Source: Candidatus Falkowbacteria bacterium RIFOXYD12_FULL_34_57 (GTDB taxonomy: Bacteria; Patescibacteriota; Patescibacteriia; Patescibacteriales; UBA12075). From it: DNA of 50,097 bases. Positions 3,638 to 26,910 of this stretch are shown in pieces (position 1 is the stretch's first letter; each line of letters begins with the position of its first letter). The DNA lies in contig MFGN01000010.1 of the NCBI GenBank assembly GCA_001780285.1, forward strand, positions 1 through 50,097, written 5' to 3'. Both the position numbers and the translations under genes were made by a program. The notes under the pieces are model-generated. The model saw only the letters and a list, made by a program, of their open reading frames with translations, had not been told where the DNA came from and did no database searches.

Positions 3638-4824
3638 AATGCGAGCCTCTTAATTAAATTTGTTATGCTTTGATGCTCTATTGGTTTACCGTTAGAATAT
3701 TTCTTAACTATATCCTTTGTGTAAGGAATCTCGGCTAAAATGTTTAAATTATATTTTTTGGCCAAATTTTCAATTAATTGACCATTTCCAACATCTGCCT
3801 TATTCAATACAATACCGGCATCTAATTTCATTTTTTCAAAAAGTTGGATCAATAATTTTAAATCATGTTCTCCCAAAGGAGTTGGCTCAGTTACGGCTAA
3901 AGCAAATTCGCATTTTTTCAAAGCGGCAATAACATCGCAATGAAGTCCGGCGGCCGTATCGATAATAACATAATCGTATTGATCTTTTTTTTCTTCTACT
4001 ATTTCATTTAGGGAGCTAACTACTATTTCGGCAATTGGTTCACCGCTTTTTAGCTCACCGGACAATAAATCAATATTATATTTAGATCCGATATATATTT
4101 CACCAATTTCTTTTTTATCCCAACTGATTATTTGCTCCGGGCACTTCAAGACACAAGCGCCGCAACCGTTGCATTGCGATGAAAAAAACATTGGGTCTTT
4201 TTTCTTAATTGAAATAATAGCATTTTCTTTACACACTGCTCCGCACAAACCGCATTGCTTACACCCGGATAAATCCCATGCGGGAATTCTTTGATCTACA
4301 ATCTTTAATAATTTTCTCTCTATTCCTAAAAGCAAATGATCGTTAGGACAGCCAACATCAGCATCAACCAACAATACTTTTTTATTCTTAGCCAATCCAT
4401 AAGCCAGTGCCGTGGCGACGGTTGACTTGCCTGTTCCGCCCTTTCCGCCGCTTACACCTATTAAAACTGTTTTATAATTTTTCATAGCCCTTTTTAATGC
4501 CTCCATTGGTAAGTTGGCGCAATGCCAATGATCTAATGGTAATCCGCCTAAAGCCTTGGATATATCATCTATAGTAACAGTTAATGCCTCTTTTATACTT
4601 TTTCCTTTGATTAAATCAATAAAAACATCAGTGGTGGATATTACCCCCGGACATCCATGAACCATAAATTTAGCATTTACTATTTTTTCTTTTATAATTT
4701 TAAGGTTCAATTCAATATAATCATTGCATTCAGAATTATAAGCATTGCTTCTCGCGTTAGCATCTTTTAAATCTCCTATATTTTTAGTATCACGAAAACG
4801 CTTTAACATTTTTTCAGTAAACAT
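3634..4824 (-). CDS. NifU/IscU-like scaffold fused to MinD-ferredoxin ATPase
   Basis: Residues 1-115 resemble an IscU/NifU scaffold: the three ligand cysteines are in place (Cys33 in a C-N-D motif, Cys58 in HGCPG, Cys102 in HCAN), with a partly conserved ISKALGGLP segment. A MinD-type ATPase follows, with Walker A GGKGGTGKS around residues 126-134. A ferredoxin insert has Cys188/191/194/198 and Cys218/221/224/228. A protein that can both assemble a cluster and hold ATPase and ferredoxin functions suggests cluster transfer; this is inference from the domains. It sits between a NifX-like gene and its paralogous MinD ATPase in one operon. Confidence 0.88.
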   Translation of the reverse strand: MFTEKMLKRFRDTKNIGDLKDANARSNAYNSECNDYIELNLKIIKEKIVNAKFMVHGCPGVISTTDVFIDLIKGKSIKEALTVTIDDISKALGGLPLDHWHCANLPMEALKRAMKNYKTVLIGVSGGKGGTGKSTVATALAYGLAKNKKVLLVDADVGCPNDHLLLGIERKLLKIVDQRIPAWDLSGCKQCGLCGAVCKENAIISIKKKDPMFFSSQCNGCGACVLKCPEQIISWDKKEIGEIYIGSKYNIDLLSGELKSGEPIAEIVVSSLNEIVEEKKDQYDYVIIDTAAGLHCDVIAALKKCEFALAVTEPTPLGEHDLKLLIQLFEKMKLDAGIVLNKADVGNGQLIENLAKKYNLNILAEIPYTKDIVKKYSNGKPIEHQSITNLIKRLAL

Positions 4825-4836
4825 AGATCTTTTTCT

Positions 4837-5202
4837 TTAATGTTTGCATCCCCCTACTAAATCACTCAACTTATCTAAATTATTAATTACCTCTTTAATA
4901 GTTTGATATTGGCCCGTTTTAATAACTACTCTTTTTTCAGCAAATAGGCTGATAGCCCGAGCGCCAATTCCATGTGCATAAACCATGGTTGGATTAGCAT
5001 TTTGCATAACTTGATCTACCGGAGAAATCTGTTCGTTATGATGATCTAAGGTATTATCTGTAATTTTTAATTTTTTTGTTTCTGTATCATACAAACCAAA
5101 ATACGGCGCATGCCCAAAATGAGATGAAATCTCTGAATTCTCGCCCTTGTTATTAATTAGTGGGAAATATACTTTCTCACTGCTTTGATTCTTAATAGTC
5201 AT
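4837..5202 (-). CDS. NifX/NifB-type cofactor-binding domain protein
   Basis: This compact single-domain protein of about 121 residues shows the family's HFGHAPYFGLYD motif and ends in a Gly-Gly-Cys-Lys-His tail that could bind metal. It is a second, divergent NifX-like copy in the operon. The open frame extends to a TTG at 5238, overlapping the DUF134 gene, but the ATG at 5202 (MTIKNQSSEK) gives the expected domain start and avoids the overlap, so I use that. The downstream NifU-MinD gene begins 12 bases after its stop. Confidence 0.83.
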   Translation of the reverse strand: MTIKNQSSEKVYFPLINNKGENSEISSHFGHAPYFGLYDTETKKLKITDNTLDHHNEQISPVDQVMQNANPTMVYAHGIGARAISLFAEKRVVIKTGQYQTIKEVINNLDKLSDLVGGCKH

Positions 5203-5224
5203 AAGTCTAAAAAAAATAATAAAT

Positions 5225-5527
5225 TTATTTATGGACAATACTAATAGCCTTTCCGTTTACTAAGGCATCGCTTACTTTTTTGTAGGCAGAAGTTAAAATG
5301 CGCTGAAAAGTGGTCTGCGAAGTTTTCATTCGCTTGGCACATTCATTTTGATCCAAATCTTCTATATTCTTCAAACGCAATGCTTCACCCTCTTCAATGG
5401 TTAACTCGATGATTTTCAAATCCATCATTGGTACCCCCCTGGGCTTAAAGTAATCTGCTTTGGGGTTAAATTTTATATTCCGAGACAGACATGGACGCCC
5501 CGGACCTCGTCCAAATTTATTTACCAT
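5225..5527 (-). CDS. DUF134 (UPF0251) helix-turn-helix protein
   Basis: The 100-residue protein begins with a basic GRGPGRPCLSRNI segment. It has the DUF134 core ELTIEEGEALRLKNIEDLDQNECAKRMKTS, followed by a sigma-70-region-4-like HTH (SQTTFQRILTSAYKKVSDALV). The family is a presumed DNA-binding regulator that commonly neighbours NifX/MinD Fe-S genes. It is the obvious candidate to bind the direct repeats over the operon promoter; this is inference. No Shine-Dalgarno is evident, and the ATG is at 5527. Confidence 0.88.
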   Translation of the reverse strand: MVNKFGRGPGRPCLSRNIKFNPKADYFKPRGVPMMDLKIIELTIEEGEALRLKNIEDLDQNECAKRMKTSQTTFQRILTSAYKKVSDALVNGKAISIVHK

Positions 5528-23085: not shown

Positions 23086-23124
23086 ATCTTTTTTCGGCGG
23101 GTTGCCCGCCCGCCGAAAAAAGAT
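23086..23124. repeat. Long perfect GC-cored palindrome
   Basis: A 16-bp arm (23086-23101, ATCTTTTTTCGGCGGG) pairs perfectly with 23109-23124 around a 7-base loop. It overlaps the 5' end of the 115-aa frame. It belongs with the other CCGCC...GGCGG palindromes in the window but is the longest. Confidence 0.85.
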
Positions 23125-23846: not shown

Positions 23847-24079
23847 AAGTTTATATTTACGGCTACTAAATAAATCCGAGAAAAACAACGCCGTATTTGT
23901 AGCTTATCTCGTTAAGACTAAAAAAGCGTCTGATAGCTTAATTTGGTCAAGGTGGAGATTTTTAATACTACCTTGAGGGAATAAAAGCCGACGCTAAAAT
24001 AAAAGGCTTAGAGATATGCGTTCCCCTATTCTTGTTAATTTTGGCATTTGATTTTTCTGTTCTTACAAAATTTAACTCT

Positions 24080-24985
24080 ATGGCTGAATCCTATGACTTT
24101 AAGATTGTTAAATCAGGAAAAGAAATTGAAGTGTACCAGTACAAAGACAAGGAAATACTCCGAGGCTACAAAAGAAAAGAACGAAATAATAAAAAAGTAA
24201 AACCCTTTAAGGGTCAACTGAATTTCAACGAATACAAAAAAGAATTAAAACGGCTGGAAGAATGGGAAAAAGAATATAAGGCTAAAACCGTTTTTTCCAT
24301 TTCCCGCACACGCACGAATATCCGCCGACTGGCAAACGCCAATCCGCACTTAAACAAATTCTTAACGCTCACTTTTGCCGAAAGCACGACCGAGCTGACA
24401 AAAGCCAATAATCTTTATAACCAAGCGATGAAAAGAATTATCCGCAAAAGAAAAGATTTTGAATATATCGCCGTGGTTGAATTTCAGAAAGACATAGATT
24501 ATCACGGCAATAAGAAAGAAAAAGGCGGATCAGTCCATTATCATTTACTATGCAATATCAAAATGCCTAAAACGGAAAATCTGAAAGAATTGTTTGACTG
24601 GGAAAAATGGTTTGCCTTGCGATATTGGAAATACGGCTTCATCAAGATCAAAGATGTTCGGCAGGTTTCCAATATGGGGGCGTATTTCTGCAAGTACTTA
24701 GGTAAAGATATGTTTGACAAGCGGATGTTCGGCAAGAAGAAATTCTTTTGTTCCCAAAAACTAAAAAAACCAGTCGAGATGACTGGCTATAAAGCGACTA
24801 TTTTTTACGACCAACATATTAGCGGACTAACGCCGATATTCGCTAAAACCTTTTTTAGCGAATACGCAGGCACGATTGATTATTCCGCCTTTACCTTGCC
24901 CGAGGACATACCTGTGATTTTGAACATCGACAATCAAAAAAATGATCAAAGAAAAACATATTTTGGAATTTCAGAGATTATATAA
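24080..24985 (+). CDS. HUH-type replication initiator (rolling-circle Rep)
   Basis: Three motifs are in order: LTLTF (motif 1), GSVHYHLLCN (metal-binding HUH, about residues 153-155 from the ATG), and MGAYFCKYLGKD (catalytic Tyr with following Lys-Tyr, about residues 200-206). This layout matches Rep proteins of small plasmids and microvirus-like phages that nick a single-strand origin. The frame is open to a TTG at 24032, but the ATG at 24080 (MAESYDFKIVKSG) is the more plausible start. It overlaps the small downstream ORF. With ArdC-like and serine-recombinase neighbours it marks an integrated plasmid or phage. Confidence 0.82.
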   Translation: MAESYDFKIVKSGKEIEVYQYKDKEILRGYKRKERNNKKVKPFKGQLNFNEYKKELKRLEEWEKEYKAKTVFSISRTRTNIRRLANANPHLNKFLTLTFAESTTELTKANNLYNQAMKRIIRKRKDFEYIAVVEFQKDIDYHGNKKEKGGSVHYHLLCNIKMPKTENLKELFDWEKWFALRYWKYGFIKIKDVRQVSNMGAYFCKYLGKDMFDKRMFGKKKFFCSQKLKKPVEMTGYKATIFYDQHISGLTPIFAKTFFSEYAGTIDYSAFTLPEDIPVILNIDNQKNDQRKTYFGISEII

Positions 24986-25106
24986 AAAGATACACAAAGA
25001 AAAAATAACTTATGATGAAGCATTAAAACAATGCACTGCTATGGTCAATCTATGTAAGATTGTCTATAGACCGATTACCAAACAAGACCTTGAAAAATAC
25101 GGTTAA
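24942..25106 (+). CDS. Small accessory protein (54 aa) overlapping rep
   Basis: The ATG frame MIKEKHILEFQRLYKKIHKEKITYDEALKQ ends ...YRPITKQDLEKYG. It is predicted to be all helical. It overlaps the last 44 bases of rep, the usual place for a co-translated copy-number or accessory gene. I know of no family name; the composition and overlap argue that it is real. Confidence 0.55.
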   Translation: MIKEKHILEFQRLYKKIHKEKITYDEALKQCTAMVNLCKIVYRPITKQDLEKYG

Positions 25107-25125
25107 AATGTGATATTATTTGAGC

Positions 25126-25233
25126 GAGACCTAACAAGACAATTAAATACCAAAAGTTTTAATTCTATTTGTCCCCAGAAAGGGGCGGTTTGTGCCGACA
25201 AATATTACTTTTGGTAATGTCTTGTTGGGTCTC
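25126..25233 (+). other. 108-nt near-perfect hairpin with a perfect three-way junction
   Basis: GAGACCTAACAAGACA (25126-25141) pairs with 25218-25233 (16 bp, one G-U). TACCAAAAG (25148-25156) pairs with 25208-25216, and TTTGT (25168-25172) with ACAAA (25198-25202). At the top two hairpins sit side by side with no unpaired linker: CCCC-agaaa-GGGG (25173-25185) and CGG-tttgtg-CCG (25186-25197). It lies between rep and the recombinase gene. It may be a single- or double-strand replication origin, a folded recombination site, or an RNA element in the recombinase leader. Confidence 0.85.
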
Positions 25234-25267
25234 CACGACCGTCCCTTTTTGATTGTTAAAAAATAGT

Positions 25268-26899
25268 ATGGCCAACAAAAACAAAATTAAATATTTCGCT
25301 TATGTCCGCAAGTCCACCGAGGGCGAAGAACGGCAGGCTTTGTCTATTTCCAGTCAAATGGACAAAGTAAATGAGTTTTTCTCTGGTCTGGATATTGTGG
25401 AAGTTCTGGAAGAAAAGCACTCCGCTTTTAAGCCGTATAATCGCCCTGTATTTGAGAATATGATTTTTAGGATACGAAAGGGCGAAGCCAATGGAATAAT
25501 CGCCTGGCACCCCGACAGACTGTCCAGAAACGAGATTGACGCTTCGACTATCACCTACTTGGTAAGGACTGGAATCATAGACGATCTCAAATTCGGCTCA
25601 TACAATTTCGATAATAGTCCCGAGGGAATCATGATGTTGCAATTATCGCTTTCCCAATCTCAATATTTTTCTTCCAAACTGGGAAAAGATGTTCGGCGTG
25701 GACTAGAAAAGAAATTTGAAATGGGCTGGCACCCGAACAAATGCCCTAATGGATATTTAAACATTACCAGAACCAACCAAGGATACAGCACGATTAAGAC
25801 GGATGAGAAGCGATTTAAAATCATCCGCAAGGCTTTTGATTTGATGTTAAGCGGTAATTATTCCGTTCCTGAAATATTGGACAAACTAAATAATGACTGG
25901 GCTTTCAAACCCAAGTCAGGCTATAACGGTCTATCAAGAAGCTCACTCTATCGGATGTTTACCAATTTGTTTTATACTGGAATCATTCAATATGACGGAA
26001 AGCAAAAACAAGGCAAGCATAAAGCCATGATCACTCTGGAAGAATACGATCGCATACAGTATTTACTGGGCAGACACGGCAAACCAAGGCAAAGAAAAAA
26101 CGATTATGCCTATACTGGTTTGATTCGCTGTACTAATTGCGGTTGTATGGTTAGCGCGGATTTAAAAAGGAAAACAATCAAAAAGACAGGCAGGCAAAAA
26201 GAATATACCTATTATTGCTGTACCCATAAAAAGCGAGAAATAAAATGCGAAGAAAAAGCCGTTGAGGTTAAAGCTCTTGAAGAACAGATTGAACAGGAAT
26301 TATCAAAGTATGAATTTAAAAATGAGTTCAAGGAATTGTTTTTTGGGATTATAGATGAAGAAGCCAAAGACAAGCCAAAAGAAAATAAAATTATTACTGA
26401 TAATTTACAGGATAAAATCAATAAACTAAAAATCGAGAAAACCAATCTTACCAAACTGATCTGCAAAAGGTTGATAAGCGATGAGGAATTCCAAAAACAA
26501 AGGAATGAATATGAAAAAGAAATTGCCACCCTCTTACAAAAGCTAAACAAGCAAAGAAGCGAGAAAAAAGATGAGGTATTAAAAAAGGTAAAATTTGCCG
26601 TTCAAGCAAAAATTAACTTCAAAAAAGGTAATCAAAAAGACCGCAGAATTATACTAAATGAAATCGGCTCGAACCGAGAGATGAAAGACAGAAAACTGAT
26701 AGTTACGCCCTATAATTGGCTTATTCCCATTCAAAAGGATGTTAAGACCTTAGAGGCTCAATTTTACACGCTCGAACTGCACAAAAACCCTTTAAACACA
26801 AAACAAAAAGAGGCTTACACCTCTCTTTGTCGCAATCTGCTCGGGGACAGGGACTCGAACCCCGATAGCCAGGACCAAAACCTGGAGTCCTACCGTTAG
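25268..26899 (+). CDS. Large serine recombinase (integrase)
   Basis: The resolvase domain starts at the ATG at 25268, with the nucleophile Ser16 in FAYVRKSTEGEE, then AWHPDRLSRNEID. A recombinase domain (NGYLNITRT...LYRMFTNLFYTGI) and a zinc-ribbon (CTNCGCMVS...YYCCTHKKREIKC) follow. A coiled coil (ENKIITDNLQDKINKLKIEKTNL) comes next. At 543 residues it is a typical large serine integrase. Its last 20 or so codons (LLGDRDSNPDSQDQ...) are simply the antisense of tRNA-Gln. The gene's end is therefore supplied by the integration target, which marks the attachment boundary. Confidence 0.93.
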   Translation: MANKNKIKYFAYVRKSTEGEERQALSISSQMDKVNEFFSGLDIVEVLEEKHSAFKPYNRPVFENMIFRIRKGEANGIIAWHPDRLSRNEIDASTITYLVRTGIIDDLKFGSYNFDNSPEGIMMLQLSLSQSQYFSSKLGKDVRRGLEKKFEMGWHPNKCPNGYLNITRTNQGYSTIKTDEKRFKIIRKAFDLMLSGNYSVPEILDKLNNDWAFKPKSGYNGLSRSSLYRMFTNLFYTGIIQYDGKQKQGKHKAMITLEEYDRIQYLLGRHGKPRQRKNDYAYTGLIRCTNCGCMVSADLKRKTIKKTGRQKEYTYYCCTHKKREIKCEEKAVEVKALEEQIEQELSKYEFKNEFKELFFGIIDEEAKDKPKENKIITDNLQDKINKLKIEKTNLTKLICKRLISDEEFQKQRNEYEKEIATLLQKLNKQRSEKKDEVLKKVKFAVQAKINFKKGNQKDRRIILNEIGSNREMKDRKLIVTPYNWLIPIQKDVKTLEAQFYTLELHKNPLNTKQKEAYTSLCRNLLGDRDSNPDSQDQNLESYR

Positions 26900-26910
26900 A
26901 CGATCCCCGA
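26840..26910 (-). tRNA. trnQ: tRNA-Gln (anticodon UUG)
   Basis: A cloverleaf is visible: acceptor TCGGGGA/TCCCCGA, D-arm GTC...GAC, anticodon arm CCAGG-TTTTGGT-CCTGG with anticodon TTG, variable loop CTAT, T-arm CGGGG-TTCGAGT-CCCTG. Discriminator G, and CCA is not encoded. 71 nt. The serine recombinase reads antisense across most of it. Confidence 0.95.

What the first reader, a model, noticed from the sequence alone, without database searches (positions are those of the whole stretch)
25126..25233. 108-nt hairpin capped by a perfect three-way junction between rep and integrase
Seen: nested arms of 16, 9 and 5 bp, then two terminal hairpins with no unpaired bases between TTTGT, CCCC...GGGG, CGG...CCG and ACAAA. 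Such regular base pairing cannot be chance. Known: rolling-circle plasmids and ssDNA phages carry folded origins (dso, sso) and folded recombination sites. Inference: it is the element's replication or recombination hairpin, or an RNA that controls the recombinase.
Basis: seen in the sequence. Interest (0 to 1): 0.7.

Follow-up and report, generated by a model that had tools for sequence, protein, structure and literature searches.

The report
RNA on/off switch before an integrase
The hairpin is the front half of a two-shape RNA that sits before DNA-integrating recombinase genes across many Patescibacteria lineages and can fold either into this hairpin or into a transcription stop signal, so it probably decides whether the mobile element's integrase gets made; it is absent from Rfam and I found no description of it.

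Summary
The hairpin at 25126-25233 is real (z -5.8 as RNA, 0 of 200 shuffles) and ends in a perfect three-way junction, but it is only half of the element. It is the 5' leader of the large serine recombinase (LSR) gene at 25268. A sigma70-type promoter ends about 7 nt before its first base pair. A strand inside the hairpin (25177-25194, 'segment 2') is also complementary to the sequence right after it (25234-25250, 'segment 4', ending CCCTTTTT). That second helix looks like an intrinsic terminator and excludes the big hairpin. Covariance models built from relatives found the same 1-2-3-4 design in 21 of 111 genomes of the order and 41 of 381 of the class. It lies almost always upstream of an LSR, with or without rep nearby, and once at the head of a type III restriction-modification operon. 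Both helices covary. Best reading: a transcription attenuator in which hairpin 1:3 forms first and permits LSR transcription, and terminator 2:4 forms only if segment 1 is captured. What captures it is unknown: tests for an antisense promoter, a read-through partner and tRNA sensing were negative. The replication-origin and recombination-site readings are not supported. Rfam has no match.

The parts
25090..25095 (+). -35 box TTGAAA of the leader promoter
   Evidence: Exact match; 18-nt spacer to the -10. Logo over 89 leaders shows TTGAAA-like enrichment at this place
25114..25119 (+). -10 box TATTAT
   Evidence: -10 found in 78 of 89 leaders with at least 5 of 6 matches, about 32 expected from shuffles; start of transcription inferred at about 25126, the first paired base
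25126..25165 (+). Segment 1: 5' arms of the hairpin (GAGACCTAACAAGACA, TACCAAAAGT) with the U-rich unpaired stretch (about 25158-25165)
   Evidence: TTTT present at this place in 78 of 89 leaders against 8 and 0 in neighbouring windows; no ATG, GTG or TTG in it (sequence)
25166..25204 (+). Three-way junction: TATTTGT/ACAAATA, CCCC/GGGG, CGGT/GCCG
25177..25194 (+). Segment 2: AGAAAGGGGCGGTTTGTG, locked in the junction in one state, 5' arm of the terminator in the other
   Evidence: 14 + 3 bp with 25234-25250 around one bulged U
25195..25201 (+). CCGACAA: pairs with 25222-25228 TTGTTGG in the terminator state, competing with segment 1
   Evidence: Constrained fold
25205..25233 (+). Segment 3: 3' arms of the hairpin; its 5' half folds on itself (25202-25209/25213-25220) in the terminator state
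   Evidence: self-hairpin covaries, 7 of 8 pairs with double changes
25234..25250 (+). Segment 4: CACGACCGTCCCTTTTT, 3' arm and U-tract of the intrinsic terminator
   Evidence: T frequency 93-98% at the first three bases after the C core, U-rich for about 11 nt, then A-rich, over 89 leaders
25268..26899 (+). Large serine recombinase gene controlled by the leader (ATG 25268)
   Evidence: PF00239, PF07508, PF13408
24942..25106 (+). 54-aa small protein gene between rep and the leader; recurrent partner of these LSRs
   Evidence: Profile search
24032..24985 (+). rep gene (REP_ORF2-G2P), neighbour but not needed for the leader
   Evidence: PF23343 E 4.5e-15
26839..26910 (-). tRNA-Gln, inferred integration target at the 3' end of the LSR gene
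   Evidence: ARAGORN and Rfam

Best explanation
The hairpin is the antiterminator half of a transcription attenuator that forms the 5' leader of the LSR gene. RNA polymerase starts at about 25126, the first base of the hairpin. Segments 1, 2 and 3 are transcribed first and fold as hairpin 1:3, which locks segment 2 in the three-way junction; segment 4 (CACGACCGTCCC-TTTTT) then stays single-stranded and transcription runs on into the recombinase. If segment 1 is captured by something, segment 2 pairs with segment 4, segment 3 folds on itself and pairs with CCGACAA, and the resulting GC-rich hairpin plus U-tract stops transcription 17 nt before the start codon. Shown by computation: both structures, their mutual exclusion, covariation of both, promoter, U-tract, link to LSR genes. 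Inferred: that termination occurs, that read-through is the default, and that an unidentified trans-acting factor switches it.
For: (1) Structure. (2) Terminator helix: RNAalifold given only an alignment of 16 rep-linked leaders chose helix 2:4, not the hairpin; counted there, 98.7% of cells of that helix pair, 6 of its 14 pairs with double changes. (3) Own arms fit far better than foreign ones in 89 leaders: 1:3 -21.7 own, -9.4 foreign, -7.3 shuffled kcal/mol; 2:4 -24.7, -18.0, -10.8. (4) Mutual exclusion: segment 4 starts 0-2 nt after segment 3, while segment 2 lies at the far end of a helix stack of over 30 bp. (5) Switch behaviour in silico: the full leader folds as 1:3 in 86 of 89; without the first 22 nt, 76 of 89 fold as 2:4; prefix folding of the window leader shows 1:3 complete before segment 4 exists. 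(6) Promoter: -10 hexamer in a fixed place, best PWM position at -12 in 64 of 89 leaders. (7) U-tract. (8) Link to LSR: 38 of 39 distinct leaders, and all leader loci that were fetched, have an LSR downstream; 39 of 80 LSR loci gathered by protein have the leader, mostly ending 20-40 nt before the LSR match, and a model-free search recovers the design in 38 of those 39 with 0 in shuffles.
Against: No transcript data exist here. Some phylum-level members have short or interrupted U-tracts (e.g. CCCUUUAAG in L039, CCAUUUGG in L037), so termination may be weak or the 2:4 helix may act on translation there. Hairpin 1:3 is the more stable fold in 85 of 89, so a switch needs a factor, and none was found: no conserved antisense promoter, no upstream sequence pairing with segment 1 and no other complementary site of note in the window, no specific match to the adjacent tRNA. 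13 of 89 do not fold as the terminator when segment 1 is removed.
Confidence: 0.75

Rival explanations
1. The two folds control translation rather than termination: helix 2:4 lies just before the start codon and blocks ribosome binding; hairpin 1:3 frees it.
For: In many distant members the AUG follows helix 2:4 within about 10 nt (e.g. L098 CCCTTTAGGGTTTTTATATG, L105), and the lower part of 2:4 can keep pairing while losing poly-U (L063, L072). L151 has an unrelated 1-2-3-4 leader next to its AUG without a U-tract.
Against: The distance from 2:4 to the start codon varies from about 6 to about 45 nt or more, some members carry a Shine-Dalgarno outside the structure (L040, L044, L046), and a U-rich tract right after the GC core is the rule.
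Confidence: 0.12
2. A folded DNA element: origin (dso or sso) of the rolling-circle Rep, or a folded recombination site.
For: It lies 141 nt downstream of a REP_ORF2-G2P gene and folds as single-stranded DNA too (z -6.4).
Against: It tracks LSR genes, not rep; a sigma70-type promoter and U-tract are in register with it; it is intact in integrated copies and the tRNA attachment site lies at the other end of int.
Confidence: 0.03
3. A stand-alone small RNA of about 125 nt ending at its own terminator, whose proximity to the LSR is only positional.
For: Own promoter and terminator-like end.
Against: A stand-alone RNA would not need a terminator that is mutually exclusive with its main fold; the LSR start follows within tens of nt across the phylum.
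Confidence: 0.07

Closest known systems
Antisense-RNA-driven transcription attenuators of plasmids pT181 (repC) and pIP501 (repR)
   Same: Leader upstream of the key gene of a mobile element; terminator just before the start codon; a competing upstream pairing (pre-emptor) prevents the terminator unless a trans-acting RNA occupies the leader (described in PMC5703833).
   Different: Controls a serine recombinase, not rep; transcription starts at the hairpin's first base pair; the competing pairing is one long hairpin with a three-way junction; no antisense promoter found.
Amino-acid operon attenuators (trp leader, ribosome-dependent)
   Same: Four segments with two mutually exclusive pairings, one an intrinsic terminator (general knowledge).
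   Different: Pairings are 1:3 and 2:4, not 1:2/2:3/3:4; segment 1 has no start codon or leader peptide in the window.
Riboswitches and T-box leaders
   Same: Leader with alternative terminator and antiterminator.
   Different: No conserved ligand-sized core: nearly all stem pairs vary; no Rfam match at the leader; no preference for the adjacent tRNA.

Membership tests
Transcription attenuator (general) | Promoter-proximal leader upstream of the controlled gene | tested here: met
Transcription attenuator (general) | Intrinsic-terminator hairpin followed by a U-tract | tested here: met
   weaker U-tract in some phylum-level members
Transcription attenuator (general) | Mutually exclusive antiterminator pairing, conserved by covariation | tested here: met
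Transcription attenuator (general) | Measured premature termination that responds to a signal | not testable with these tools
   No transcript data
pT181/pIP501-type antisense attenuator | Countertranscript promoter within the leader | tested here: not met
   No conserved reverse-strand promoter: best mean position score 1.6 against 10.9 forward. Lineage-specific or non-sigma70 promoters are not excluded
pT181/pIP501-type antisense attenuator | Controls the rep gene | tested here: not met
   Downstream gene is an LSR or its operon, once an R-M operon
Ribosome-mediated (trp-like) attenuator | Leader peptide ORF overlapping segment 1 | tested here: not met
   No ATG, GTG or TTG in 25126-25165 (sequence)
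Rolling-circle origin (dso/sso) | Accompanies the rep gene | tested here: not met
   Absent at rep loci with tyrosine integrases, present at LSR loci without rep within 1.5 kb
Rolling-circle origin (dso/sso) | Rep nick site in an exposed loop | not tested
   No consensus nick site known to me for this Rep family
LSR attP/attL/attR site | Located at the element boundary or crossover | tested here: not met
   Intact between rep and int; tRNA gene at the 3' end of int
Any Rfam 15 family | Score above the gathering threshold | tested here: not met

The most novel reading that the evidence does not exclude
A new RNA family that acts as an establishment switch for mobile elements of Patescibacteria: read-through is the naive state in a newly entered cell, and an element-specific trans-acting signal (most simply an RNA complementary to segment 1) shuts off the integrase, and in some elements a restriction-modification operon, once the element is resident. 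The pairing code 1:3 differs between elements sharing a genome (own -34 to -38, cross -7 to -17 kcal/mol), as expected for such specificity, while 2:4 is interchangeable.
Probability: 0.35. Interest if true: 0.8.

Novelty: new variant of a known kind. Interest (0 to 1): 0.68.

Why it matters
How serine integrase expression is controlled is little known outside a few model phages (my knowledge). This is a compact, widely conserved RNA switch at that control point in a phylum with few known regulators and hardly any genetics. It gives an immediately testable model, could be a source of orthogonal attenuators and integrases for genome engineering, and its use before a type III restriction-modification operon hints at a general way for mobile elements to time gene expression on entering a new cell.

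Tried and rejected
Antisense-RNA promoter inside or next to the leader: PWM scan of the reverse strand, no conserved site. Upstream 'segment 0' that would flip the switch on read-through transcripts: no enrichment over foreign or shuffled sequence. Sensing of the target tRNA: leader-tRNA pairing no better with own than foreign tRNA, -43.9 against -43.0. The small protein next to the leader as its dedicated regulator: it occurs equally with LSRs lacking the leader. Antisense transcription from the tRNA promoter: in the window a terminator-like hairpin with T-run follows the tRNA on the minus strand. Direct repeat of the tRNA 3' end marking the other element boundary: none in the window with up to 3 mismatches. 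Rfam: only weak chance-level matches, the leader itself to microRNA precursors. Close relatives of the window's integrase in viral contigs: none with the single protein; with the protein alignment only L156 and L157 carry the leader. MAFFT alignment of all 16 rep-linked leaders misplaced the arms, so structure models were built from a cleaner 8-sequence seed.

Full report
WHAT IS THERE. The window (contig 10 of a 1.6-Mb genome) carries a small integrated element: rep (PF23343, 24032-24985), a 54-aa gene (24942-25106), the reported hairpin, and a large serine recombinase (LSR) gene (25268-26899; PF00239, PF07508, PF13408) whose 3' end overlaps tRNA-Gln (26839-26910, minus strand). The hairpin at 25126-25233 is as described and far beyond chance: helices of 16, 10 and 7 bp, then two short hairpins with no unpaired base at the junction.

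RELATIVES. The same genome has two more copies, each just downstream of a rep homolog. Reading downstream of rep in related genomes gave over a dozen versions with diverged sequence but the same plan. A covariance model from 8 of them (R1) and a wider one from 39 (R2) found the element in 12 of 380 genomes sampled over the phylum (R1), 21 of 111 of the order (R1) and 41 of 381 of the class (R2). Of 39 distinct leaders have an LSR downstream; the exception, L057, begins with the same short gene that precedes the LSR in L056. All leader loci fetched have an LSR too. The link is to the LSR and not to rep: rep loci whose integrase is of the tyrosine type have no leader (L010, L012), and many leader-LSR pairs show no rep homolog within the 1.5 kb of flank held. 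Among 80 LSR loci collected by protein similarity, 39 carry the leader, mostly ending 20-40 nt before the LSR match, and two more (L106, L119) have it with one gene in between. Named hosts are nearly all Patescibacteria lineages; single cases in a Dependentiae and a Neomarinimicrobiota MAG may be transfer or binning errors.

THE SECOND HELIX. That helix is 98.7% paired over the 16, with double changes in 6 of 14 pairs. Examples: GGGGTAGTTGTG/CACGACTACCCC (L011), GGGCAGTTCTG/CAGGACTGCCC (L027), CCCTAAAGGGGCGGTCTG/CAGACCGTCCCTTTAGGG (L098). In the window GGTTTGTG is matched by CACGACC around one bulged U. Hairpin 1:3 covaries even more strongly (39 pairs, 34 with double changes; that alignment was fitted to the model and leans towards it, but the alignment-free test agrees). 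In that test, pairing each leader's arms with its own or with foreign partners, own pairs win by 12 kcal/mol for 1:3 and 7 for 2:4. Segment 4 begins 0-2 nt after segment 3, so the two helices cannot coexist.

SIGNALS. Over 89 leaders the upstream logo is TTGAAA - about 17 nt - TGnTATAAT, ending so that transcription would start at the first base pair of the hairpin; the window has TTGAAA 25090 and TATTAT 25114. After the C-rich arm of segment 4 come about 11 U-rich positions, then A-rich sequence: an intrinsic-terminator signature. A U-rich unpaired stretch in segment 1 is kept in 78 of 89. The full leader folds as 1:3 in 86 of 89; with its first 22 nt removed 76 of 89 fold as 2:4. Prefix folding of the window leader shows 1:3 complete before segment 4 is made.

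MECHANISM. These facts fit a transcription attenuator whose default is read-through and which terminates when segment 1 is occupied. This is the logic of the pT181 repC and pIP501 repR leaders, where an antisense RNA triggers the terminator and a pre-emptor sequence otherwise prevents it (PMC5703833). It is not filed as a member of that family: no antisense promoter was found and the controlled gene differs. What occupies segment 1 is the open question. Because the first base pairs of 1:3 are found as U-A, A-U, C-G and G-C in nearly equal numbers (column pair 5/219), a host protein reading that sequence is unlikely; an element-specific RNA, or a factor binding the conserved U-rich bulge, fits better. 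The three leaders of this genome have mutually incompatible 1:3 arms but interchangeable 2:4 arms.

OTHER GENES UNDER THE LEADER. In one element a longer version heads a type III restriction-modification operon (Mod 3829-5439 and Res 5436-7616 in L237, assigned from sequence motifs), and in another it precedes a gene for a small membrane protein (L238). Together with the integrase this suggests control of genes needed on entry into a new cell; that is inference.

LIMITS. No expression data; the termination step and the default state are inferred; U-tracts are poor in some distant members, so translational control is not excluded; the absence of the leader in other phyla was checked only on the LSR loci; the literature search covered only the open library and found no description of this element.

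Noticed in passing
window 24942-25106; L076-L155: A 54-65 aa protein family without convincing Pfam or PHROG match is encoded upstream of, and on the same strand as, most of the LSR genes examined, across phyla and with or without the leader. It is a good candidate for the recombination directionality factor of this LSR clade.
   Followed up: partly
window 26839-26910; L076-L155: 59 LSR genes have a tRNA gene close after their 3' end (mostly 90-140 nt past the LSR match), all 59 on the opposite strand (Gln, Ser, Asn, Asp, His, Trp and others), so this LSR clade appears to integrate at tRNA 3' ends.
   Followed up: partly
window 26795-26829 (minus strand): The 3' end of the integrase gene contains, on the tRNA's strand, a terminator-like hairpin with T-run (AAAGAGAGGTGTAAGCCTCTTTTTG), as if the element supplies a new terminator for the tRNA it inserts behind.
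   Followed up: no
L237 3652-3794, 3829-7616: A second, longer leader of the same design heads a Mod-Res type III restriction-modification operon on an element that also carries an LSR leader.
   Followed up: partly
L004, L016, L020, L021, L151: Leaders of other LSRs show the same 1-2-3-4 order of complementary segments with unrelated sequence (e.g. GGACACAATT...AATTGTGTCC and AGAGAGCAGTGGCTGTT...AACAGTTTCACTGCTCTCT), so the design may be older or have arisen more than once.
   Followed up: partly
L035, L056, L069, L080, L082, L083 leaders, minus strand: The leader is pseudo-symmetric: the reverse strand also matches the model weakly, because the terminator helix has an A-tract opposite its U-tract (AAAAAGGG...CCCTTTTT).
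   Followed up: no
window 23086-23124: A perfect 16-bp inverted repeat ATCTTTTTTCGGCGGG/CCCGCCGAAAAAAGAT lies upstream of rep; similar CCGAAAAAAG palindromes appear near rep in other loci (L011, L024).
   Followed up: no
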